Shown here one piece after another: positions 2,579 through 12,450 of a DNA stretch of 41,729 bases. Each line of letters starts with the position of its first letter. Position 1 is the first letter of the stretch. Made by a program: the position numbers and the translations under genes. The notes beneath the pieces were generated by a model, which was given only the letters and a program-made list of their open reading frames with translations, was not told the DNA's origin and ran no database searches. The stretch is from Kamptonema formosum PCC 6407 (GTDB lineage: Bacteria > Cyanobacteriota > Cyanobacteriia > Cyanobacteriales > Microcoleaceae), in the NCBI RefSeq assembly GCF_000332155.1, contig NZ_KB235903.1, positions 1,253,360 to 1,295,088 of the forward strand. The letters are read 5' to 3'.

Positions 2579-4072
2579 ATGACCCACTGTGTCACCCCTG
2601 GATGCCAAAACCCCCGAAACCCAGACACAGCGCAACATTGCCAGAGTTGCGGTTCCCGGTTGTTACTTCAACAACGCTATCGACCCATGCGGCCCATCGG
2701 TCAAGGTGGCTTTGGGAAAACCTTTTTAGCAGTCGATGAACAAATTCCCCTCAAACCATCCTGCGTCATCAAACAATTTTCCTTTCCCACTCACGACCCA
2801 GAAAGCTACAATACAGCCGCTAGATTATTTCGCCAAGAGGCCCTGCGCCTTAACCAACTTGGCGGACACCCTCAAATTCCTCAACTATTAGCCCACTTTG
2901 AAGAAAATCACCTTCTCTATCTAGTTCAAGAGTTTATTGAAGGGCTAACTCTCTCCCAAAAATTGCGCCAAACAGGGATTTTTAACGAAGAGGAGATTTG
3001 GGAATTGCTACGGGACTTGTTACCCGTACTCCAATTTATCCACGAACATTCTATCATTCATCGCGACATTAAACCAAGCAATATTATTAGCCGCAATAGC
3101 GATAGCAAACCAGTTTTACTCGACTTTGGGATTGCTAAAATGATTCCCAACAATGCTGTCATTCATACGGGTACGATTATTGGTTCTCCCGAATATATGG
3201 CCCCCGAACAATCGCGAGGAAAAGCGATATCAGCTAGCGATCTATTTAGTTTAGGCGTTACCTGTATTCACTTAATGACAGGTGTTTCTCCTTGGGATAT
3301 GTATGACATGGTAAATGACCGTTGGGCGTGGCGAGATTTTTTACCTACTCGTAACAGTGACAACTTAAATAAAATTCGTCAAAGCCAGGTTAAGCTCGGT
3401 AAAATCTTAGATAAATTGCTAGAACATTCTCTGGGTAAACGCTATCAGTCGGCAGAAGAAGTTTTAAAAGACACGATCGCTAGCACTAATCCAGCTATTA
3501 GCAAAACTTCTAAAGTAGTCAAGTCTAAGCTTACACCAGTGAAATCGGTTTCATCACCATTTCGTCCTAGTTTTCTGGTAAAAATCCTACCTTGGTCTGT
3601 TAAACCTACTGGAGATAATTTGATATCGGCAGCAGGTGTTGATTACACTCAATTGCAACATTTACTAGCAGCACAAAAATGGAAACAAGCGGATCTAGAA
3701 ACTTGGATAGTTCTCTGTCAAGCTTTGGGTAAACCAACTAAATGTTATCTTCATCCCAATGAAATTGATAATTTACCTTGTGTAGATTTGGAGACAATTA
3801 ATCAACTGTGGGTGAAGTACAGTAACGGGCAATTTGGCTATAGCATACAAACGCAAATTTATGATAGTGTTGGCAATGATTACGCGAAATTTTGCGATCG
3901 CGTTGGCTGGCTTACTTATAATCCTCATAATCCCTACGAAGGCCTAAACTTTAGTCGCACAGCGCCACCTGGACATTTGCCCTCGCGGATATGGGTAGTC
4001 GGCTTAAAATGGTGGCGACATCTAGAAGTAATGGCTGCTAAACTCAGTCAATGCGAAGTATATTTTAAGTAG
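2579..4072 (+). CDS. Zinc finger-Ser/Thr kinase-GUN4 fusion protein
   Basis: A 497-residue protein with three parts. Residues 4-24 hold a four-cysteine zinc-ribbon pattern (C4, C9, C21, C24). A canonical Hanks kinase follows: GQGGFG loop (41-46), K65, HRDIKPSN (161-168), DFG (182-184) and SPEYMAPEQ. About 355-495 is a GUN4 domain, recognisable from DYTQLQHLLAAQKWKQAD through CDRVGWLT to the NFSRTAPPGHLP segment. GUN4 binds protoporphyrin IX and its Mg form, so the kinase may respond to tetrapyrrole status; that link is inference. All catalytic residues are present, unlike the kinase upstream. The start abuts a heptamer array. hemC, an early step of the same pathway, lies about 6 kb downstream but not in the same operon. 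Confidence 0.9.
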   Translation: MTHCVTPGCQNPRNPDTAQHCQSCGSRLLLQQRYRPMRPIGQGGFGKTFLAVDEQIPLKPSCVIKQFSFPTHDPESYNTAARLFRQEALRLNQLGGHPQIPQLLAHFEENHLLYLVQEFIEGLTLSQKLRQTGIFNEEEIWELLRDLLPVLQFIHEHSIIHRDIKPSNIISRNSDSKPVLLDFGIAKMIPNNAVIHTGTIIGSPEYMAPEQSRGKAISASDLFSLGVTCIHLMTGVSPWDMYDMVNDRWAWRDFLPTRNSDNLNKIRQSQVKLGKILDKLLEHSLGKRYQSAEEVLKDTIASTNPAISKTSKVVKSKLTPVKSVSSPFRPSFLVKILPWSVKPTGDNLISAAGVDYTQLQHLLAAQKWKQADLETWIVLCQALGKPTKCYLHPNEIDNLPCVDLETINQLWVKYSNGQFGYSIQTQIYDSVGNDYAKFCDRVGWLTYNPHNPYEGLNFSRTAPPGHLPSRIWVVGLKWWRHLEVMAAKLSQCEVYFK

Positions 4073-4107
4073 ATTAATATCAACTAGGATTTACCCACGT
4101 CGAGGTT

Positions 4108-4173
4108 AGAAACCGGGTTTCTTCGTAGATATCTAGTTGAGAATCGGGGATTTGTCAGAGAAACCCGGTTTCT
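4108..4173. repeat. Paired GAAACCGGGTTTC palindromes
   Basis: Two 15-base near-palindromes (AGAAACCGGGTTTCT at 4108-4122, AGAAACCCGGTTTCT at 4159-4173) are also exact reverse complements of each other, giving a hairpin with a 36-base loop. It sits between the GUN4 kinase and the CHAT gene. A half copy recurs near 8369-8383. Confidence 0.8.
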
Positions 4174-4242
4174 TTGTGTAAGTCATAAATTTATGATACA
4201 ATTACTAAATAATAATTCTCGGCTAATCTCTCCCTACCTGAA

Positions 4243-5991
4243 ATGGACGAACTACGCCGCCAAGCTTATCAAAATTTGATTGATGCCCTCCTCACCTGCG
4301 ATCGCGAGGAAGAAATGGGCATTATGCAGGCTAATTTAGAGTTGATAGACGAGGGTTTTGCCCAATTTTTGCGGCGAGACTGGGCAACTCAAACTCTGGG
4401 AAAGTTGCAGGATGAAGAAGCTTTCAATTGTGCTATTAATTTACACAACTTTAATCTGGGTTTTTCTAGTCTGCGGCAAGGCAGTCGGGCAAGTAATTTA
4501 GAGGTAAGTATCGCTTGTTTGGAGATTGGGTTAACTGTTATTACTCGCGAAGCTTACTCGGAATATTGGGCAGCGTTTCAAAACAATCTGGGGGCTGACT
4601 ACGGCAACAGAATCAGAGGGGAAAAAGCAGAGAATTTGGAAGTGGCGATCGCGGCTTATTTGGCATCTTTGGAAGTTTACACCCGTGAGGCTTTTCCGAT
4701 CAATAATGCTGAAACTTTATATAACCTCGGACTTGCCTACCGGGATAATTCCCAACTCCCAGCAGCTTACGATACCTTTAACACTGCCATTGAGACAGTC
4801 GAATTAATGCGGAGTGAAATCATTATCGGTGGTGAAGCAGACAGACAGAAATTAGCTGAAGAATGGAATAAACTTTATCAGGAAATGGTCGAAGTTTGCC
4901 TAGCAATGGCAAACCAAACTGCCGCCCTAGAATACGTCGAACGCAGCAAAACCCGAAACCTCGTAGAATTATTTTACAATGCCCGCAGTGTCCCGCAAAA
5001 TCCACAGCCGATTAGTTTTGCTGAAATTGGCAATCTGTTAGCTGAAGATGAGGCAATTTTGGAATGGTACATTACCTTTAACGGCTTTAAAGTTTTCATT
5101 GTCACCTATCAACCCTTCTTAGCCCCCCCTTACCAAGGGGGGGTTGGGGGGGTTGATGTTTGGGAATCTTCCGAACAAGATTTGCAAGCATTAGAGGAAT
5201 TTCAACGGGAATATATCGACGACATCAAAGATAATGAAAAATACGACAACTGGAAAAACCAGCTAGAAACCCGCCTGGAAAAATTAGCTGAAATCTTACA
5301 TATAGATGAAATAATTTCTCGCCTCCCGGAAACTTGTAAGCGATTAATCTTAGTTCCCTTCCGATATTTGCACTTGTTACCACTTCACGCCTTAACCAGT
5401 CGCCGACTCAGGGAAAATGTAGAAGAAACTGGCAGTCTCCTCGATCTTTTCCCTGGCGGCGTGAGATATACTCCCAGTTGTCAGCTATTACTATTATCTC
5501 AGCGGGTAAATCCGCCTGGGGAAGATTCATCACCGAGAAAATTGTTTGCCATTCAAAACCCGACAGAAGATTTAGACTTCACCGATATCGAAGTTGAAGC
5601 TATTGCTAAATCCTTTAATCCTGCCGAAGTTTTGAAGAGGGAAAAGGCAAGTAAGACAGGATTGCAGGAACGAATTACCGGGTTACAAGATGCCGATATC
5701 GCGCATTTTTCTTGTCACGGTTTTTTCGACTTTTCCAATCCCCGGAAATCCGCTTTAATCTTAGCTGGGTCGAAAGTAACCCCCCTTAATCCCCCCTTGG
5801 TAAGGGGGGAGACTGGAGAGGATTTCTCCTTGGTAAGGGGGGAGACTGGAGAAGATTCCCCCTTACCAAGTGGGGAGACTGGAGAGGAGAAAAAAGAAAA
5901 TTCTCCCTTGGCAAGGGGGGAGACAGGAGAAGATTTCCCCTTACCAAATGGCGAGACAAGAGAAGTCCCCCCCTTACCAAGGGGGGGCTAG
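4243..5991 (+). CDS. TPR-CHAT caspase-like protease, N-terminal part
   Basis: A 582-residue open frame. Residues about 1-230 are helical TPR-like repeats (NNLGADYGNRI, YNLGLAYRDN, AALEYVERSKTRNLVELF). From about 330 comes a CHAT domain: RLILVPFRYLHLLPLHAL, YTPSCQLLLL, and the catalytic-His motif HFSCHGF (His492). The frame then runs through a minisatellite and stops at TAG 5989-5991. The catalytic-Cys half continues in another frame (5992-6506), so as written the protein lacks its Cys. One extra G in the G7 run at 5981-5987 would join both halves exactly. A second repeat copy (about 5122-5151) is carried in frame as PPYQGGVGGV. CHAT proteases cleave partner proteins in bacterial immunity and death pathways; the coupled pair at 8464-10232 are plausible partners. 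There is no clear ribosome binding site. Confidence 0.85.
   Translation: MDELRRQAYQNLIDALLTCDREEEMGIMQANLELIDEGFAQFLRRDWATQTLGKLQDEEAFNCAINLHNFNLGFSSLRQGSRASNLEVSIACLEIGLTVITREAYSEYWAAFQNNLGADYGNRIRGEKAENLEVAIAAYLASLEVYTREAFPINNAETLYNLGLAYRDNSQLPAAYDTFNTAIETVELMRSEIIIGGEADRQKLAEEWNKLYQEMVEVCLAMANQTAALEYVERSKTRNLVELFYNARSVPQNPQPISFAEIGNLLAEDEAILEWYITFNGFKVFIVTYQPFLAPPYQGGVGGVDVWESSEQDLQALEEFQREYIDDIKDNEKYDNWKNQLETRLEKLAEILHIDEIISRLPETCKRLILVPFRYLHLLPLHALTSRRLRENVEETGSLLDLFPGGVRYTPSCQLLLLSQRVNPPGEDSSPRKLFAIQNPTEDLDFTDIEVEAIAKSFNPAEVLKREKASKTGLQERITGLQDADIAHFSCHGFFDFSNPRKSALILAGSKVTPLNPPLVRGETGEDFSLVRGETGEDSPLPSGETGEEKKENSPLARGETGEDFPLPNGETREVPPLPRGG
5122..5151. repeat. In-frame C7TTACCAAG7 repeat in CHAT gene
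   Basis: A G/C homopolymer palindrome (CCCCCCTTACCAAGGGGGGG followed by TTGGGGGGG) lies inside the CHAT reading frame and encodes PPYQGGVGG. It is the same element that expands at 5779-5998. Confidence 0.8.
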
Positions 5992-5998
5992 GGGGGGT
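5779..5998. repeat. 33-bp minisatellite inside CHAT domain
   Basis: Tandem units built on CCTTGGTAAGGGGGGAGACT or its TTACCAAG inversion, with lengths of about 33, 33, 45, 33 and 33 bases. Every unit is a multiple of three, so the frame is kept and encodes a peptide repeat like LVRGETGEDFS. The final unit ends in G7-CTA-G7, where the frame is lost. The array lies between the catalytic His and Cys halves of the CHAT domain. Confidence 0.9.
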
Positions 5999-6506
5999 TT
6001 CCTCCAACCAAAGTTATATTCGTTCCCGCCGAGGCGAAATCTTCGATATTACCCAATGCGTAACGCTGACAGAAATCTTTGATTTAAAGTTAAATAAGTG
6101 CAGTTTAGTTACCCTTTCCGCCTGCGAAACTGGGTTGACTGATATTAGAGATACCACTGATGAGTATATCGGATTGCCTAGCGGTTTTTTCTATGCGGGG
6201 GCCACGAATGTAATTAGCACTTTATGGGCAGTTAATGATGTATCTACGGCTATTTTGATGATCAGGTTTTATGAACTTTTGCTATCGGAAATTCGGCCGC
6301 CTGTGGCCATCGCTTTGCGGGAGTCGCAGTTGTGGCTAAGGGAGGCAACTGTGCAAAAGTTGGTAGAATGGGTGGCAGATTGTCAGTTAATTGCAGATGC
6401 CAAGAAACAGGAAATACAAGATTATATTAAATGGGGTGAAAACCCAGAAAATAAACCTTATCAATCTCCCCATTTCTGGGCGGCGTTTTGTGCAGTTGGG
6501 CAATAG
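5992..6506 (+). pseudogene. CHAT protease, C-terminal half out of frame
   Basis: The frame open from the G tract to TAG at 6504-6506 encodes SSNQSYIRSRRGEIFDITQC, then LVTLSACETGL, GFFYAGATNVISTLWAVND and YQSPHFWAAFCAVGQ. These are the second half of a CHAT domain, with the catalytic Cys in SACETG (codon 6123-6125). It has no start codon or ribosome binding site of its own; an internal TTG at 6135 lies past the Cys. It is therefore the continuation of the 4243 gene rather than a separate gene. No other lesion is visible, which suggests recent frame loss, phase variation or a sequencing error in the homopolymer. Confidence 0.85.
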
Positions 6507-6568
6507 ATTTCTCAGGAAATGGCAATCGAGACAAGCCTTTGCCATCATGTCAAGTTAAGCTGAAACCC

Positions 6569-6591
6569 GCCAGGGGTTAAAACCCCTGTCT
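6569..6591. repeat. Left copy of 23-bp repeat flanking IS110 element
   Basis: The 23-base sequence beginning GCCAGGGGTTAAAACCCCTG is itself nearly palindromic. Its exact reverse complement lies at 8326-8348. The two copies bracket the IS110-type transposase. Confidence 0.85.
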
Positions 6592-6599
6592 AATAGCTT

Positions 6600-8290
6600 A
6601 AGTCCTCCTCAGAAACTCAATCTAGTTTTGAGGCGCAAGCAACCAGCTCAAACCCAAGAGATTGAGCTGTTTTCTCCAGCTTAGAGACAATACGTTGTCG
6701 ATATTTCTGTTCGTAATAGTCAGCACCTGAATCGGCATAAGCGGTTTTTGTACTCCAGAGGTGATAGAAGATGCGGGCTAGCTTGTGGGCAGTAGCGGTA
6801 TTAGCCTCTGGAGCGCCCAATCTGGCTCGTAACCGACGATAAAAAGCCCCCAAAGCTGATTGAGAGCGAGATAAAGATTGAGCAGCTAAACGGAAGGCAT
6901 TAGCAGCCCGATTAACTACACAACGGGTATGAGAACTTTTGACTTTACCGCCTGTAATCCTCGCAGACGGACACAACCCTAACCAAGAACAAAAATGCTT
7001 AACAGTGGGAAAACGAGTAGCATCCAATCCGACTTCCGAGAGCAGAGCTTGTACTGTGAGGACATCAAAACCAGGGATTTGAGTAAAATCTACTCCACTA
7101 ATCCGATACAACTGATGGCGCAAGTCAAAATTGGGTTCGTGACCTCTGGGCTTTCTGTTACCCCGTTTGGGAGGGTCTGGTGGAGGATGGTTTTCTTCGC
7201 TAGCAAAGCTAGCTAAATATCGCTCAATCTCCACATCGCAGCTAGCAATTTGCTCTTGATAGATGTCGTAGAGTTGTAACTCTTGTTTTAACACAAATAT
7301 ATGCTCAACTCGATAGTCTCCACTCAAGGCTTTAGCAATATCTGCGGTACTACTTTTAATCCGAGAATTTTTCAAATTAGCTAAGACTTGAGGATTCCCT
7401 TTCTCCAGCTACAATGGCGCGGATAATGCCATCCCAGTGACTCCTGTGATGTCACTGATGACTTTATGTAGTTGCAGATTCATTTGAATTAATGCTTTCT
7501 GCATCCGCAGTACGTGGCTGCTACTGCTTTTGATTAAGTTATCGCGGTGGCGAATGTAACTACGTAGAACACAACTTTGGTCATCAGGACGAAAGGAACC
7601 GGACAATAAACCATAAGTATGTAGCTGTTGCAACCATTGACAATCCAACACATCACTTTTTCTGCCCGGTACGGTTTTGACGTGATGGGCATTCACCAGT
7701 TTGACTTCGATACCCCTGGCTTCAAAAATTTGAAAGGCTGGTATCCAATAGACTCCTGTCGATTCCATCGCGATGGTGTCTATCCCACATTCCACTAACC
7801 ATGAGGCCATCTCGATTAAGTCAGGGGTAAAACAGCCAAATTTACGTACATTCTGTGACGTTCGATCAGGTGGAACGCAAACCCAGTGTTCTTGTGAGCC
7901 AATATCTATACCTGCGGCATTTGGGTTAATCTGGGTGAAATTAGACATTTCACCCGCAACAGGTTTGCTTATCTTGCATCGGATCATTTAGATGACTCCT
8001 CTTGGCGCTCGAACGAAAGGAAGTGTCCCGATTGGTGGGCGGATGTGATCTTAGATTCTCCTCAACGGGATAGGGTAATAGCCCTTCACCAATGTCATAA
8101 TCATCATGCCCACGACCACGCTCTGAATCAGGCTCAAAATCGCACTATTGATTTGTCGGTCTTTGACTCTCAGGACACAGGGATAATATATCCGACTGGC
8201 AACTTTTGGGCTAGCTTTACTGTTTCTGTGATTCATAACGGGCACGCCGGGCCCGTGGAACGCTCTGAAGAGGACTAATTAAATTTCAAA
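6600..8290 (-). mobile_element. IS110-family insertion sequence, decayed
   Basis: The element holds one transposase gene (6617-7987, minus) and about 300 bases of non-coding DNA upstream of its start (7988-8290). IS110 elements lack ordinary terminal inverted repeats, so the ends cannot be fixed from one copy; the limits given are approximate and lie between the 23-bp repeats at 6569 and 8326. In this family the non-coding end next to the recombinase start encodes a bridge RNA, so 7988-8290 is the place to look for one. No obviously broken host gene is visible at the junction. The element separates the CHAT gene from the 8464/8805 pair. Confidence 0.75.
6617..7987 (-). pseudogene. IS110-family transposase, two compensating frameshifts
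   Basis: Read on the minus strand, 7987 to 7412 encodes a DEDD RuvC-like domain: IDIGSQEHWVCVP, MESTGVYWIP and RKSDVLDCQWLQ. The part from 7375 to 6617 encodes the C-terminal Transposase_20 domain (FPTVKHFCSWLGLCPSARITGGK and following). Both halves are in one frame but a TAG lies at 7411-7409. The adjacent frame across that point reads IIRAIVAGER, which fits the family between TGM and NPQVLANLKN. The simplest reading is loss of one base near 7425-7430 (GCAATT to GCATT) and gain of one in the C run at 7397-7399, bracketing the stop. The product would be about 455 residues if repaired. The sequence does not show whether the change is real decay or base-calling error. Confidence 0.85.
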
Positions 8291-8463
8291 GTCTTCTTAG
8301 TCCTCTTCAGAGGACTCGATCTTTGAGACAGGGGTTTTAACCCCTGGCTGTTTTCGAGGAATATTGACGCAGAAACCGGGTTTTTGTCCCCGCGTGCGTA
8401 AGTCCTGCCCTTGTGAATATAATAGAATTATCAAACCCCAAATTACCAGGAGGCAATTTAGCC
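7988..8463. other. Non-coding region: IS110 end and dense palindromes
   Basis: No convincing gene is seen here. 7988-8260 is the presumed left, possibly bridge-RNA, end of the IS110 element. 8263-8278 (CTCTGAAGAGGACTAA) and 8297-8312 are a perfect 16-bp inverted repeat, and AGTCCTCTTCAGAGGACT (8299-8316) is a small hairpin by itself. The 23-bp repeat copy at 8326-8348 follows, then a GAAACCGGG half-repeat near 8371. AGGAGG at 8449-8454 is the ribosome binding site of the next gene. Confidence 0.6.
8326..8348. repeat. Right copy of 23-bp repeat flanking IS110 element
   Basis: This is the exact reverse complement of 6569-6591 (AGACAGGGGTTTTAACCCCT and three more bases), 1.76 kb away on the other side of the transposase. 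Confidence 0.85.
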
Positions 8464-8805
8464 ATGAATCCAGAAATAATGATTGATTCTTTTCTCAAAG
8501 TATTGAAAACCTGTCCTAGTTTATTTTCCGAAACAGCCACCGCCGGATTAAAAACCCTTGAGACAAAAGTTGTCGCGGCAGAAAATGAATCAAATCAAAC
8601 AATTTCCGATATTCTTAGCGATTGGTGTAGCGACTATGACGAAATTACAAACGCAGTAAAAGCCGCCACCAGAGGCAAAGTTATCCCCAAAGCTAGTAAA
8701 CCGCAAGGAGACGAAAATATAGAAGAAAATCACTTTCCCCGCCTATTTCCCAAGCTGCTAGAATGTTTAGAAAAGCGGATTAAATCAAATAACCCAGAAA
8801 ATTAA
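8464..8805 (+). CDS. Small acidic protein, possible CATASP-like partner
   Basis: A 113-residue protein. The ATG at 8464 is chosen because AGGAGG lies 10 bases upstream; a GTG at 8413 in the same frame would add 17 residues but has no ribosome binding site. The sequence is mostly helical, with no membrane segment or known catalytic motif: FLKVLKTCPSLFSETATAG, then LETKVVAAENES, a DEITNAVKAATRGK stretch and a basic-acidic tail ending LLECLEKRIKSNN. It overlaps the next gene (TAATG, stop 8803-8805, start 8805), so the two are translationally coupled and probably bind each other. From memory this resembles the small protein (CATASP) found beside CATRA proteins in caspase/TPR conflict systems, but I cannot confirm this. 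Otherwise unknown. Confidence 0.75.
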   Translation: MNPEIMIDSFLKVLKTCPSLFSETATAGLKTLETKVVAAENESNQTISDILSDWCSDYDEITNAVKAATRGKVIPKASKPQGDENIEENHFPRLFPKLLECLEKRIKSNNPEN

Positions 8806-10232
8806 TGACTGAAATCGAAACAATTTTAAAGCCTAATGTCTATATTTTTGCCTTCCATCTCATCAGCGGTACTAGGGGTAAAGATAATCCCCTTTGGAAT
8901 TGGGCGGATGAGTTTTTAGAAAGCTTTACCTCCCAAAAACTTAAATTCCAGCTTCAATTTCCCGAACCACCGTCTAAATTCCGAGTTGATTTATTGCCAG
9001 CAGATATCAGCTTAAATTTTGAGACGGAAATCAACGATCAAAATCGTGAATTAGAAGTCAGCGGGTTTGCTTTCCCTCTCCAGATTGGAGACAGTTATGC
9101 CCTATTTTTGAATGTCGGTTTACCGGATAGTTGTATGGAGGAAGTTTCCCCACAATTGCTGAGTAAATTTAACCCGCAAAATTTATTAGGAATTGTCACC
9201 GGTGAAGAGTTTTTAGGGGAAACCATTTTAATTACCGCTAAATTACCCTCACAATTACAGTCAGCAAGTCCAGAAGAACTACAATCTCTAGCTGACAAAT
9301 GCTGCAACGCTTTACTTCCTGCACAATATCGCCCTACTTTCCACCGCCACGATAAGTTATTTGGCAGTCCGATTTTTGAGTATGGTTTAACTAAGCAAAT
9401 TGCTAATTATCGGCACTTGCTTGTCTGGTTTCCCCACAACGAAGCATCGGAAGATAAGCTGGGTATTTACCAGCAGGAAATATTAGACCTGTTTTACTAC
9501 CGAAATAAAATTATTAAATCCTTTCAAAACAGCCGGCAAATTCACGGCAAACTGTTGGATGTTTACAGGGAAGTCGAGAATAATGTGGGAGAGTTGCAAC
9601 AGCAAATAGATCGACTAAATACTGACTTGACTCCTGAAAATTTACAAAAATTTAAGACGGAGTTAAAAAAACTCCTGAGAATTGCACTGGCTTATACCCA
9701 AGGGCTAACAAAATTAGAAGATTATGACAATACAATTGCGATAAATCTTAACAATTACAATGAAAAATTAGAGCAAATTCGTGTTAAAGTGGGAGTTGAT
9801 AAGGAAGAACTATCTATCTTAAATCACTTCCGTAGAAAAACCGCGCCATATATGCGATCGCAAATCGCGGGTGACTTAGGATACTTCAAACACGGGACAG
9901 ACTTAATCGAAAGCGCGATCGCCTCCATCCGAGGCATAGTTGAGATCGAACAAGCCAGAAGCGATCGCGAAACCCAACAACTACTCAGAGATAACGAGAA
10001 AGCAGATAACGAGCGAGGGGAAAAACTAGAGAAAAGCATTCAAGCGATCGGCGTAGGCTTAGCCGCAGGCGGTATCGCCGCCTCTAGCGGGCCAGAAAAA
10101 CTTTTAACAACCCTACAAAACTATCACATCCCCGTACCCCATCCCTTCATCTTCTCATTTAGCCTCAGCATCGCGATCGCGGCCTTAGCGTGGTGCATCA
10201 CACGGTGGCTACTGGGAAAAGGGCAGCCATAA
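8805..10232 (+). CDS. 475-aa protein with C-terminal membrane anchor, CATRA-like
   Basis: I do not firmly recognise the family. Residues 1 to about 200 look beta-rich and globular (YIFAFHLISGTRGKDNPLW, FAFPLQIGDSYALFLNVG). About 210-425 is helical with coiled-coil character (VENNVGELQQQIDRLNTDL, then IEQARSDRETQQLL to GEKLEKSIQAIG). A glycine-rich stretch (GVGLAAGGIAASSG) is followed by one strong membrane helix (about 446-468, FIFSFSLSIAIAALAWCITR) and a short basic tail. The layout, a sensor-like head with helical stalk and tail anchor, would suit a membrane-acting effector or scaffold. It is translationally coupled to the small protein before it and lies downstream of the CHAT protease, with an IS110 element between. 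A match to CATRA (caspase and TPR repeat-associated) domains is suspected. A role as CHAT substrate is inference. Confidence 0.75.
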   Translation: MTEIETILKPNVYIFAFHLISGTRGKDNPLWNWADEFLESFTSQKLKFQLQFPEPPSKFRVDLLPADISLNFETEINDQNRELEVSGFAFPLQIGDSYALFLNVGLPDSCMEEVSPQLLSKFNPQNLLGIVTGEEFLGETILITAKLPSQLQSASPEELQSLADKCCNALLPAQYRPTFHRHDKLFGSPIFEYGLTKQIANYRHLLVWFPHNEASEDKLGIYQQEILDLFYYRNKIIKSFQNSRQIHGKLLDVYREVENNVGELQQQIDRLNTDLTPENLQKFKTELKKLLRIALAYTQGLTKLEDYDNTIAINLNNYNEKLEQIRVKVGVDKEELSILNHFRRKTAPYMRSQIAGDLGYFKHGTDLIESAIASIRGIVEIEQARSDRETQQLLRDNEKADNERGEKLEKSIQAIGVGLAAGGIAASSGPEKLLTTLQNYHIPVPHPFIFSFSLSIAIAALAWCITRWLLGKGQP

Positions 10233-10247
10233 ACTATAATTTGTAAT

Positions 10248-10283
10248 GCCCTCCCCTGGCGGTACGATCGCCACCCAGAGGGC
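10248..10283. terminator. Hairpin after the CATRA-like gene
   Basis: GCCCTC (10248-10253) pairs with GAGGGC (10278-10283) and TGGCG (10257-10261) with CGCCA (10269-10273). The flanks GTAATGCC and GCAGCGTTAC echo the GTAACGCCGC palindrome family at 2191 and 25742. It may end the coupled pair's transcript; there is no T run. Confidence 0.4.
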
Positions 10284-10393
10284 AGCGTTACAATAACAAT
10301 CTTTAACTCCTGTAAACGTCTTCTAATAGCAGGCCCCACCTGCGGTAGTCTAGATCGAGTGACTCTATTGGCACTTTTGACGCGATCGCTCTT

Positions 10394-11365
10394 ATGTCTC
10401 CAACCACATCCGCACCCACACGCACCGTCCGCATCGGTTCCCGCAAAAGCCAACTCGCCCTCGTCCAAACCTACTGGGTGCAAGAACAGCTACAGCAACG
10501 TTTCCCCCAATGCACCTTTGAAGTCCACACCATGTCCACCCAAGGCGACAAAATCCTCGATGTCCCCCTCGCCAAAATTGGAGACAAAGGACTCTTTACC
10601 AAAGAGCTCGAAGTGGGAATGCTCAGCAACGAAACCGACTTCGCCGTACACTCTCTCAAAGACTTACCCACAAACTTGCCCGAAGGCTTAATATTGGGAT
10701 GCGTCAGCGAACGGGAAAACCCCGCCGACGCTCTTGTAGTCCACGCCAATCATCAAGACAAACAACTCGAAACCCTCCCCCCAGGCGCAGTCATCGGCAC
10801 ATCTTCCCTGCGGCGACTCGCCCAACTACGGCATCACTTCCCCCACCTCGAATTTAAAGATATTCGAGGCAATCTCAACACCAGACTTGCTAAACTTGAC
10901 GAAGGCGAATACGATGCCATTATCTTAGCAGTAGCCGGATTGCAAAGATTAGGAATGGGCGATCGCGTCCACCAAATCATCTCTCCAGAAATCTCCCTCC
11001 ACGCCGTTGGACAAGGAGCACTCGGCATCGAATGTCGCGCCGGAGACGACGACATCTTAGAATTGATTAAAGCCCTTGAACATACCGAAACTGCCCAACG
11101 TTGTTATGCCGAACGCGCATTTTTGCGAGAACTAGAAGGCGGATGTCAAGTTCCCATCGGTGTTAATACCAAAATCGAAGGCGACCAACTAACCTTAACA
11201 GGATTAGTAGCCAGTCTCGATGGTCAAAGATTAATCAAAGATACCGTCACAGGTGCCGCCGCCACCGCCGAACTTTTAGGAATTGACCTCGCCCACCGCT
11301 TACGGCAACAGGGAGCACAGGAAATCTTAGAAGAAATCTTTGCCCTAGTTAATCGCGGTTCCTAA
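10394..11365 (+). CDS. hemC: Hydroxymethylbilane synthase (porphobilinogen deaminase)
   Basis: A 323-residue cytoplasmic enzyme that joins four porphobilinogen molecules into hydroxymethylbilane for heme and chlorophyll synthesis. Family landmarks are all present: [14 protein letters not shown] at the N-terminus, [31 protein letters not shown], the arginine-rich [12 protein letters not shown] and [10 protein letters not shown], and [10 protein letters not shown] with the dipyrromethane-cofactor cysteine at C251. Length is normal for the family. The ATG at 10394 follows a HIP1 site (GCGATCGC, 10382-10389) and has no clear Shine-Dalgarno motif. It appears to be monocistronic, with repeat DNA after the stop. 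Confidence 0.97.
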
Positions 11366-11613
11366 TAGCAATCAAAGTTGAATGTTCATAGCTAATAGCT
11401 AATAGCTAATGGGAAGAAAAAACAATTACAGGAATTATACGAAAACACCATTTTCAGTCATTGCGAGCAGTATTTTCAGTCATTGCGATCGCAGCGAAGC
11501 AATCCCAATCTGTAAGTTTTCGCCAGCAGTCCTTAGTTCCTGTATTAGCTATTAGCTTTAAAGCCATACCAATCACCAATAAATAACCTATCTCCATCGA
11601 GGGAAAGCCAAAA
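11366..11613. other. Intergenic repeats between hemC and protease gene
   Basis: Three to four AGCTAAT heptamers lie at 11389-11412. A scrambled copy of the repeat GTCATTGCGAGCGAAGC...GCAATC lies at 11455-11510; its intact palindromic form is at 25795-25859. The end holds the GAGGG ribosome binding site of the next gene (about 11599-11603). Confidence 0.7.
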
Positions 11614-12450
11614 ATGAGCGATCTGGATATCGAAGAAAAATTTCAGTTAAAACCATCAAAATCTAAGGCCATTTATCGCCAGATGCAGGAAGCTCGTACC
11701 GCCTTACGACAGCAATTAAACGAGCTAAAAACCCAGTCGCGAAAAATATCAGCCTCCGTTGAGAAAGTCTTAGAATCCGTAGTTTCAGTTTATGTTATCA
11801 ATTGGGATACAGAAGAAAAAATTGCTATTGGTAGCGGCTTTTTCGTCGGCCCCGATGTCATAGTCACTAATTACCACATTGTCGCCGACATTGCAGAGGA
11901 AGATACCCTCTATGAAGAAGACGAAAGTGCAATGATTTTAGTGCAAACTCCCAACGAGCAACTGAGAATAGCAGAAGTAGTTTTTACTGGCAATTCAGAC
12001 GAAGATTTGGCGATATTATTTATCACCGATTTTATCCTCGATCGCGACACTGGGGAAGAAGTAGAAATTCCCCAAGAATATCCTCCCGTCACCTTATCTT
12101 TTGAAGCTCAAGAGGGAGAGCAAGTTATTACTATTGGCTATCCTTTAGGTGAAACTGCTTCCACAGTAAATCAAGGCACAATTAGCAATATTTTAGTGTC
12201 ACAAAAATCTGGAGGAGATGAGGACATGGAGGTAATTACTGAGGTCAAAGTGCTGCAAATAGATGCAGCTATTAATCGCGCTAACTCTGGTGGCCCGTTA
12301 ATTAATCTTGCAGGTCAGGTAGTCGGTATAAATGCTTGGGGTTGGGATGAAAAGAAGGATGTAAACTTAGCTATATCTTCTGATATTCTGGCTGACTTTT
12401 TAGATCGATTTGAAGAACTTTATGAGGATGATTGGGAAGATAATTTATAA
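11614..12450 (+). CDS. Trypsin-like serine protease with N-terminal coiled coil
   Basis: A 278-residue protein without signal peptide, so probably cytoplasmic. Residues about 18-60 form a charged helix or coiled coil (IYRQMQEARTALRQQLNELK). A trypsin-2/DegP-like domain follows with the full triad: His88 in VTNYHIV, Asp131 in DEDLAIL and Ser225 in NSGGPL, plus ITIGYPLGETASTVNQGTIS. There is no PDZ domain. Family members without PDZ or signal peptide occur as effectors in NTPase-based conflict systems as well as in ordinary protein quality control; the sequence does not decide. The start is supported by GAGGG about 10 bases upstream. It stands alone, ending directly in a tandem array. Confidence 0.9.
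   Translation: MSDLDIEEKFQLKPSKSKAIYRQMQEARTALRQQLNELKTQSRKISASVEKVLESVVSVYVINWDTEEKIAIGSGFFVGPDVIVTNYHIVADIAEEDTLYEEDESAMILVQTPNEQLRIAEVVFTGNSDEDLAILFITDFILDRDTGEEVEIPQEYPPVTLSFEAQEGEQVITIGYPLGETASTVNQGTISNILVSQKSGGDEDMEVITEVKVLQIDAAINRANSGGPLINLAGQVVGINAWGWDEKKDVNLAISSDILADFLDRFEELYEDDWEDNL

What the first reader, a model, noticed from the sequence alone, without database searches (positions are those of the whole stretch)
4243..10232. Candidate CHAT-protease conflict cassette: TPR-CHAT, small coupled protein, tail-anchored protein
Seen: a TPR-CHAT protein with His492 and SACETG Cys is followed on the same strand by a 113-aa acidic protein and a 475-aa protein with beta-rich head, coiled coil and C-terminal membrane helix, the last two sharing a TAATG overlap. 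Known: CHAT proteases act on neighbouring partner proteins in Craspase-type and gasdermin systems. Inference: the 475-aa protein is a membrane effector or scaffold kept in check by the small protein and released by CHAT cleavage. It may belong to the computationally described CATRA/CATASP group, whose function I do not know to be tested. An IS110 element has been inserted in the middle.
Basis: partly seen in the sequence, partly recalled or inferred. Interest (0 to 1): 0.8.

Follow-up and report, generated by a model that had tools for sequence, protein, structure and literature searches.

The report
Protease-linked CorA-like membrane protein cassette
Filamentous cyanobacteria carry a repeated three-gene cassette in which a caspase-like protease gene sits beside a small helical protein and a membrane protein that looks like a magnesium channel, which suggests a protease-controlled membrane switch; the copy in this window has a broken protease gene.

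Summary
The cassette is real and recurrent, but the window's copy is damaged: the CHAT gene is split into two frames between His492 and the SACETG cysteine by a repeat block, and a degenerate IS110 lies between it and an intact 113-aa/475-aa pair sharing TAATG. The 475-aa family has 8 copies in this genome, all just downstream of CHAT, and was found in 35 of 291 cyanobacterial genomes. Of 92 neighbourhoods with room upstream, 85 have a same-strand CHAT gene, 5 a divergent C14 caspase, 2 neither. All 75 full-length cassette CHAT domains keep His and Cys. The small domain is fused to CHAT in 6 loci. The 475-aa model (pLDDT 90.6) has a head, long helices and a two-helix membrane hairpin; its best PDB matches are CorA/Mrs2/ZntB, a resemblance supported only weakly by sequence. 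Pfam CATRA-N, CATRA-C and CATASP pass their cut-offs in 0 of 291 genomes, but no positive control rang. Most likely: a caspase-superfamily protease controls a CorA-like membrane effector through a small adaptor. Binding, cleavage, gating and toxicity are inferred.

The parts
4243..5991 (+). N-terminal fragment of the TPR-CHAT gene, with His492 (HFSCHG)
   Evidence: Pfam CHAT 5-171/289, E 5.9e-14; ends in the repeat block
5775..6020 (.). GC-rich direct and inverted repeat block inside the CHAT gene, between the His and Cys motifs
   Evidence: repeats of the same type at the same place in several orthologues, in or out of frame
6003..6506 (+). C-terminal fragment of CHAT (SACETG), in another frame
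   Evidence: Pfam CHAT 206-289/289, E 4.4e-20 for 6135-6506
6617..7987 (-). IS110-family transposase, frame interrupted by one stop
   Evidence: Pfam PF01548 and PF02371; frame display
8464..8805 (+). small protein, 113 aa: predicted helical bundle 3-69, disordered 72-91, C-terminal helix 94-109
   Evidence: profile family; AlphaFold2 model pLDDT 71.4
8805..10232 (+). 475-aa CorA-like membrane protein: alpha/beta head 1-212, long helices 223-427, C-terminal membrane hairpin
   Evidence: AlphaFold2 pLDDT 90.6, pTM 0.81; Foldseek; family
10026..10085 (+). first hydrophobic segment (about residues 408-427, Gly-rich), candidate TM1
10143..10220 (+). second hydrophobic helix (about residues 447-472), candidate TM2

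Best explanation
A three-part membrane effector module under the control of a caspase-superfamily protease. The TPR-CHAT protein (or, in one branch, a C14 caspase fused to STAND, WD40, TPR or other domains) senses a trigger and becomes an active protease. The small helical protein binds the protease and links it to the 475-aa protein, a CorA/Mrs2-like oligomeric channel-type protein with a cytoplasmic head and stalk. On activation the protease cuts the small protein's disordered linker or the large protein, which opens or releases the membrane part and depolarises or kills the infected or stressed cell. Shown here: recurrent linkage, exchange of protease type, conserved dyad, co-variation, gene fusion, predicted fold. 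Inferred: binding, cleavage, gating, toxicity, defence role.
For: 8 of 8 copies in this genome beside CHAT; 85 CHAT and 5 C14 of 92 neighbourhoods with room; 7 of 7 plasmid neighbourhoods read have a CHAT or C14 gene next door. His and Cys kept in 75 of 75 full-length cassette CHAT domains; CHAT and 475-aa distances co-vary, r 0.70, 0 of 2000 permutations as high. Small domain fused to the CHAT C-terminus in 6 loci, in two parts of the tree; small protein found by profile in 74 of 89 CHAT-linked loci (one, L100, is doubtful). 475-aa model pLDDT 90.6; the first 23 PDB matches are all CorA, Mrs2 or ZntB. Profile score with 15 cyanobacterial CorA proteins 36.6 against at most 30.0 in 120 shuffles. 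C14 partners carry nSTAND1, WD40, TPR, and copies lie on mobilizable or conjugative plasmids. Precedents read in passages: Csx29 (TPR-CHAT) cleaves Csx30 (PMC10028731); a CRISPR CorA effector loses immunity without its membrane domain (PMC10600005).
Against: No cleavage, binding or toxicity data. Only 2 PDB matches have E <= 0.001, with query-normalised TM-scores of about 0.12-0.22 among the first 23; hhalign probability is only 26%; the GMN motif of CorA is missing in 89 of 90 members, so ion conduction is not implied. In the C14 branch the gene in the small position is not recognised by the small-protein profile (0 of 5). The small protein's model is modest (pLDDT 71) and has no fold match. 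The window's CHAT gene is broken, and so is the CHAT of a second own-genome copy (L023). PADLOC gives no match for the window's 475-aa protein, and no cassette was tested for phage defence.
Confidence: 0.42

Rival explanations
1. A distant branch of the CATRA ternary systems: the small protein is a CATASP and the large one a CATRA that the Pfam models miss.
For: Same set of parts by name: caspase-like protease with TPR, a small protein, and a large protein with a helical second half; CATRA-C matches weakly on 4 of 90 members (best E 0.012), and 3 of the 62 weak CATRA-C places in 291 genomes fall on this family with long coverage (L035, L039, L055). PMC8195603 names caspase-dependent CATRA ternary systems (one passage).
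Against: CATRA-N, CATRA-C and CATASP over cut-off in 0 of 291 genomes; many of the other CATRA-C places lie in ORFs of 1131-1206 aa, of the length of SMC proteins (my reading), so coiled coil alone gives such scores. No positive control rang, and no true CATRA sequence was obtained for a profile comparison.
Confidence: 0.25
2. A membrane scaffold or signalling platform: the 475-aa protein anchors the protease at the membrane and is not itself an effector.
For: No GMN motif; long helical stalk; fusions and co-variation fit a scaffold equally well.
Against: CorA-like topology with a conserved Gly-rich first hydrophobic segment and a second membrane helix.
Confidence: 0.2
3. A developmental or stress-response module of filamentous cyanobacteria rather than a conflict system.
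For: Genomic matches are confined to one order; CHAT proteins also serve development there (HetF, PMC8406250, listing only).
Against: Eight diverged copies in one genome (20-50% identity to the window's copy), patchy presence (35 of 291), presence on plasmids, STAND/WD40-fused caspase partners.
Confidence: 0.1

Closest known systems
CATRA ternary systems (Pfam PF20269 CATRA-N, PF20270 CATRA-C, PF20271 CATASP)
   Same: Caspase-like protease with TPR, small protein and larger partner as a gene set (Pfam names; one passage in PMC8195603)
   Different: None of the three models reaches its cut-off in 291 cyanobacterial genomes; whether CATRA proteins have a membrane part was not seen in any call
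CRISPR type III CorA effectors (PMC10600005, passages)
   Same: CorA-like membrane part behind a different soluble N-terminal domain; the membrane part is needed for immunity there
   Different: There triggered by SAM-AMP and paired with NrN; here paired with CHAT or C14 genes
Craspase / type III-E Csx29-Csx30 (PMC10028731, passages)
   Same: TPR-CHAT protease encoded beside partner proteins, one of which is its substrate
   Different: No Cas gene among the neighbouring genes scanned; partner proteins unlike in predicted fold (Csx30 not compared by sequence)
CorA/Mrs2/ZntB channels (Pfam PF01544)
   Same: Head, long helices, long stalk helix running into TM1, short loop, TM2
   Different: GMN motif missing; no Pfam CorA match for the window protein; a true CorA gene is present elsewhere in this genome
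Bacterial gasdermin systems
   Same: Protease beside a membrane-acting protein (recalled; listings only)
   Different: Predicted helical membrane hairpin; no gasdermin among the window protein's Pfam matches

Membership tests
CATRA/CATASP ternary system | CATRA-N domain in the large protein | tested here: not met
   0 of 291 genomes over cut-off, 4 weak at E <= 0.1; own genome best E 0.52, not at this locus; no control genome rang over cut-off, so no positive control
CATRA/CATASP ternary system | CATRA-C domain in the large protein | tested here: inconclusive
   0 of 291 over cut-off; 4 of 90 members weak, best E 0.012; 3 of 62 weak places on this family
CATRA/CATASP ternary system | CATASP small protein | tested here: not met
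   0 of 291 over cut-off; no CATASP among the 25 families listed of 102 matched by 68 small proteins; no positive control
CATRA/CATASP ternary system | caspase-superfamily protease gene next door | tested here: met
   85 CHAT and 5 C14 of 92
CATRA/CATASP ternary system | profile or fold similarity to true CATRA members | not tested
   no CATRA sequence was obtained; the defining paper is not held
CorA/Mrs2/ZntB superfamily | overall fold: head, stalk helix, C-terminal two-helix hairpin | tested here: inconclusive
   first 23 PDB matches are of this group, best E 5.4e-4, but TM-scores low; hhalign probability 26%
CorA/Mrs2/ZntB superfamily | GMN motif after TM1 | tested here: not met
   G[MVIL]N in 1 of 90 members
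CorA/Mrs2/ZntB superfamily | Pfam CorA (PF01544) match | tested here: not met
   window protein: none at E <= 1; not among the 25 families listed of 193 matched by 90 members
CHAT protease family | CHAT domain with His-Cys dyad in one protein | tested here: not met
   window gene: domain present in two pieces, dyad split over two frames; relatives: 75 of 75 full-length domains keep both residues
Craspase (type III-E) | Cas7-11 gene beside the TPR-CHAT gene | tested here: not met
   genes between 52 and 16435 scanned with Pfam: kinase, kinase-GUN4, CHAT, IS110, unknowns, hemC, trypsin, RNA ligase, DNA polymerase III beta; the rest of the window was not scanned
Bacterial gasdermin systems | gasdermin fold in the membrane protein | tested here: not met
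   AlphaFold2 model is a helical stalk with a membrane hairpin; no gasdermin among the first 50 PDB matches

The most novel reading that the evidence does not exclude
Cyanobacteria have turned a CorA-type channel into a death effector gated by caspase-superfamily proteolysis: an adaptor or the channel itself is cut by CHAT or by a C14 caspase and the membrane opens. It would be a channel-based counterpart of caspase-gasdermin logic, with interchangeable protease and sensor modules.
Probability: 0.3. Interest if true: 0.87.

Novelty: new variant of a known kind. Interest (0 to 1): 0.67.

Why it matters
It gives some of the many CHAT genes of filamentous cyanobacteria (37 CHAT matches in this genome) a concrete, testable partner set, links caspase-type proteolysis to a CorA-like membrane protein outside CRISPR, and offers natural CHAT/caspase exchanges and CHAT-adaptor fusions with which to find binding and cleavage sites. 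No paper describing this cassette surfaced in the listings; the paper that defines CATRA is not held, so an earlier description is not excluded.

Tried and rejected
Rejected: a single-helix tail anchor. CATRA/CATASP as Pfam models it is not supported, but without a positive control. A separate trypsin-linked class was rejected: the plasmid protein annotated trypsin-like begins with a C14 caspase domain. CHAT neighbours on four Streptomyces plasmids and one Pseudosulfitobacter plasmid gave no match to the large or small profile. Led nowhere: phage records (no match), Rfam on 3500-11500, PDB by sequence (best E 0.009, coiled coils), PADLOC (weak, coiled-coil-like), fold search of the small protein (best E 4.7), viral fold library (none at E 0.001), CATRA-N on five plasmid records (nothing rang anywhere, so no evidence of absence). 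Weak NCBIfam similarity to helical pore-forming toxins (NheC, 7 of 90 members, best E 0.003) stands beside similar scores for SMC and Rad50 and was set aside as a coiled-coil effect; it is not disproved.

Counts and dropped rows. One search scored at most 5 candidates per genome, so its counts are lower bounds. 80 of its 93 non-own matches were fetched; the 13 weakest, mostly fragments, were dropped. The 111 loci gave 108 proteins covering at least 300 profile positions; L103, L111 and L128 (broken or cut) were dropped, then 2 duplicates, leaving 106; 92 had at least 1.8 kb upstream and 14 had less (4 CHAT, 10 none). The 2 with room and no protease are L055 and L099. One search used 75 of 89 CHAT-linked pairs (full-length CHAT domains only). 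A4 has 90 of 92 non-redundant proteins (L099 and L101 left out); A6 has 68 of 70 (L028 and L055 left out). The tree left out L101 and the duplicates and used 6 of the 7 plasmid proteins read (the seventh is a near copy); 7 of 13 plasmid records were read. CorA alignment A5: 15 of the 22 matches. A CHAT_N dN/dS value is missing for L109. L100 was not counted as a fusion: its small-profile hit lies in the TPR part.
Full report
What is in the window. The window lies in a 6.9-Mb, 12-contig cyanobacterial genome. The break lies in a block of GC-rich direct and inverted repeats. Inserts of the same type sit at the same place in related CHAT genes: in frame in L018, L109, L110 and L117, off frame in L028 and L108, and absent in L017, L107 and L116 (L117 and L028 also hold N runs there). 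Both CHAT halves still look conserved (dN/dS 0.19-0.34 against L107-L109), like the small (0.19-0.33) and the 475-aa gene (0.25-0.26), so the break is recent, bypassed or an assembly error. An IS110-family transposase frame with one internal stop sits between CHAT and the pair. The pair itself is intact.

The cassette is real. The 475-aa protein has eight copies in this genome (a ninth listed match, E 0.05, was not counted); each lies just downstream of a CHAT match on the same strand. A profile of the eight found the family in 35 of 291 sampled cyanobacterial genomes, in 22 of 115 genera, all within the window's order, as a lower bound; a plasmid of Pseudanabaena extends it outside the Nostocales and Oscillatoriales records. 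Named hosts include Microcoleus, Tychonema, Spirulina, Kamptonema, Fortiea and Nostoc. Among 92 distinct neighbourhoods with at least 1.8 kb upstream, 85 have CHAT on the same strand within 3.5 kb, 5 a C14 caspase, 2 neither. All 75 full-length CHAT domains keep the His-Cys dyad, and distances among CHAT domains follow those among 475-aa proteins (r 0.70, 0 of 2000 permutations as high, highest 0.19). Cassette CHAT genes and 475-aa genes therefore travel together.

Protease exchange and fusion. In the C14-linked members the protease gene is transcribed away from the pair, and these members cluster in one part of the tree (7 rows, 2 changes). Their caspases carry nSTAND1, WD40, TPR or, in L093, RelA/SpoT-type domains. 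On plasmids, 7 of 7 neighbourhoods read have a caspase-superfamily gene next door: CHAT upstream in three, CHAT downstream in one, C14 in three, of which two are near copies. The small protein is found by profile in 74 of 89 CHAT-linked loci, one of them doubtful, but in 0 of the 5 C14-linked ones, where only its position is kept. Its domain is fused to the C-terminus of CHAT in six loci (L019, L035, L038, L040, L082, L119), in two parts of the tree. This is the best evidence that the small protein works with the protease.

What the proteins look like. The 475-aa model is confident (pLDDT 90.6, pTM 0.81): an alpha/beta head, two long helices, and a 95-residue helix running into a Gly-rich hydrophobic stretch, then a short loop and a second membrane helix. 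By hydropathy 86 of 90 members have two or more C-terminal segments at a lax threshold and 48 of 90 at a strict one; the window's own protein has two and one. The first 23 PDB matches are all CorA, Mrs2 or ZntB (best E 5.4e-4), but only two have E <= 0.001 and TM-scores are low. A profile comparison with 15 cyanobacterial CorA proteins aligns the membrane hairpins (score 36.6, probability 26%, E 7e-4); 120 shuffled CorA profiles reach at most 30.0, the reversed profile 23.6 and CHAT, C14 and small-protein profiles at most 20.0. The GMN motif is missing. I read this as a CorA-like protein whose homology is likely but not proven. The small protein is modelled as a four-helix bundle, a disordered linker and a C-terminal helix (pLDDT 71), with no fold match.

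Mechanism. Precedents: Csx29, a TPR-CHAT protease, cleaves Csx30 encoded beside it (PMC10028731, passages), and a CRISPR CorA effector loses immunity when its membrane domain is removed (PMC10600005, passages). By analogy the most likely scheme is sensing through TPR or STAND/WD40 parts, activation of the protease, cleavage in the small protein's linker or in the large protein, and opening of the membrane. Every step after linkage and fold is inference. A review lists one cyanobacterial orthocaspase with a CorA-like domain (PMC7475262, one passage), a hint that caspase-CorA pairings exist.

Known or new. None of the three Pfam models reaches its cut-off in 291 genomes, but no control genome rang over cut-off either, and the CATRA-C hints are weak. 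I therefore do not file it as CATRA and leave a distant relation open. It works like a caspase-linked ternary system and is best called a new variant of that kind, with a CorA-like membrane component as the new part.

Noticed in passing
L093:4530-10301: One ORF joins a C14 caspase domain, an AAA/NACHT-type NTPase, TPRs and RelA/SpoT, TGS and ACT domains: a caspase fused to a (p)ppGpp synthetase-like part.
   Followed up: partly
window 2579-4072: Ser/Thr kinase fused to GUN4; strong match to a PADLOC PD-T4-6 model (604 bits).
   Followed up: no
L023:4147-6390: A second own-genome cassette has a CHAT cut short: the profile matches positions 7-101 only.
   Followed up: no
L055:6057-6452 and L066:4151-4519: HEPN and nucleotidyltransferase genes, of the kind that form toxin-antitoxin pairs (recalled), sit inside or beside some cassettes.
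   Followed up: partly
window 5775-6020: Related CHAT genes carry repeat inserts of the same type in the loop between His and Cys, in or out of frame: a hot spot for inserts.
   Followed up: partly
window 11614-12450: Trypsin-like peptidase gene downstream of hemC.
   Followed up: no
L177:4017-7039: 46 Pseudosulfitobacter plasmid records match the CHAT query; the one read has a CHAT gene overlapping a 478-aa gene, not a relative of this family by profile.
   Followed up: partly
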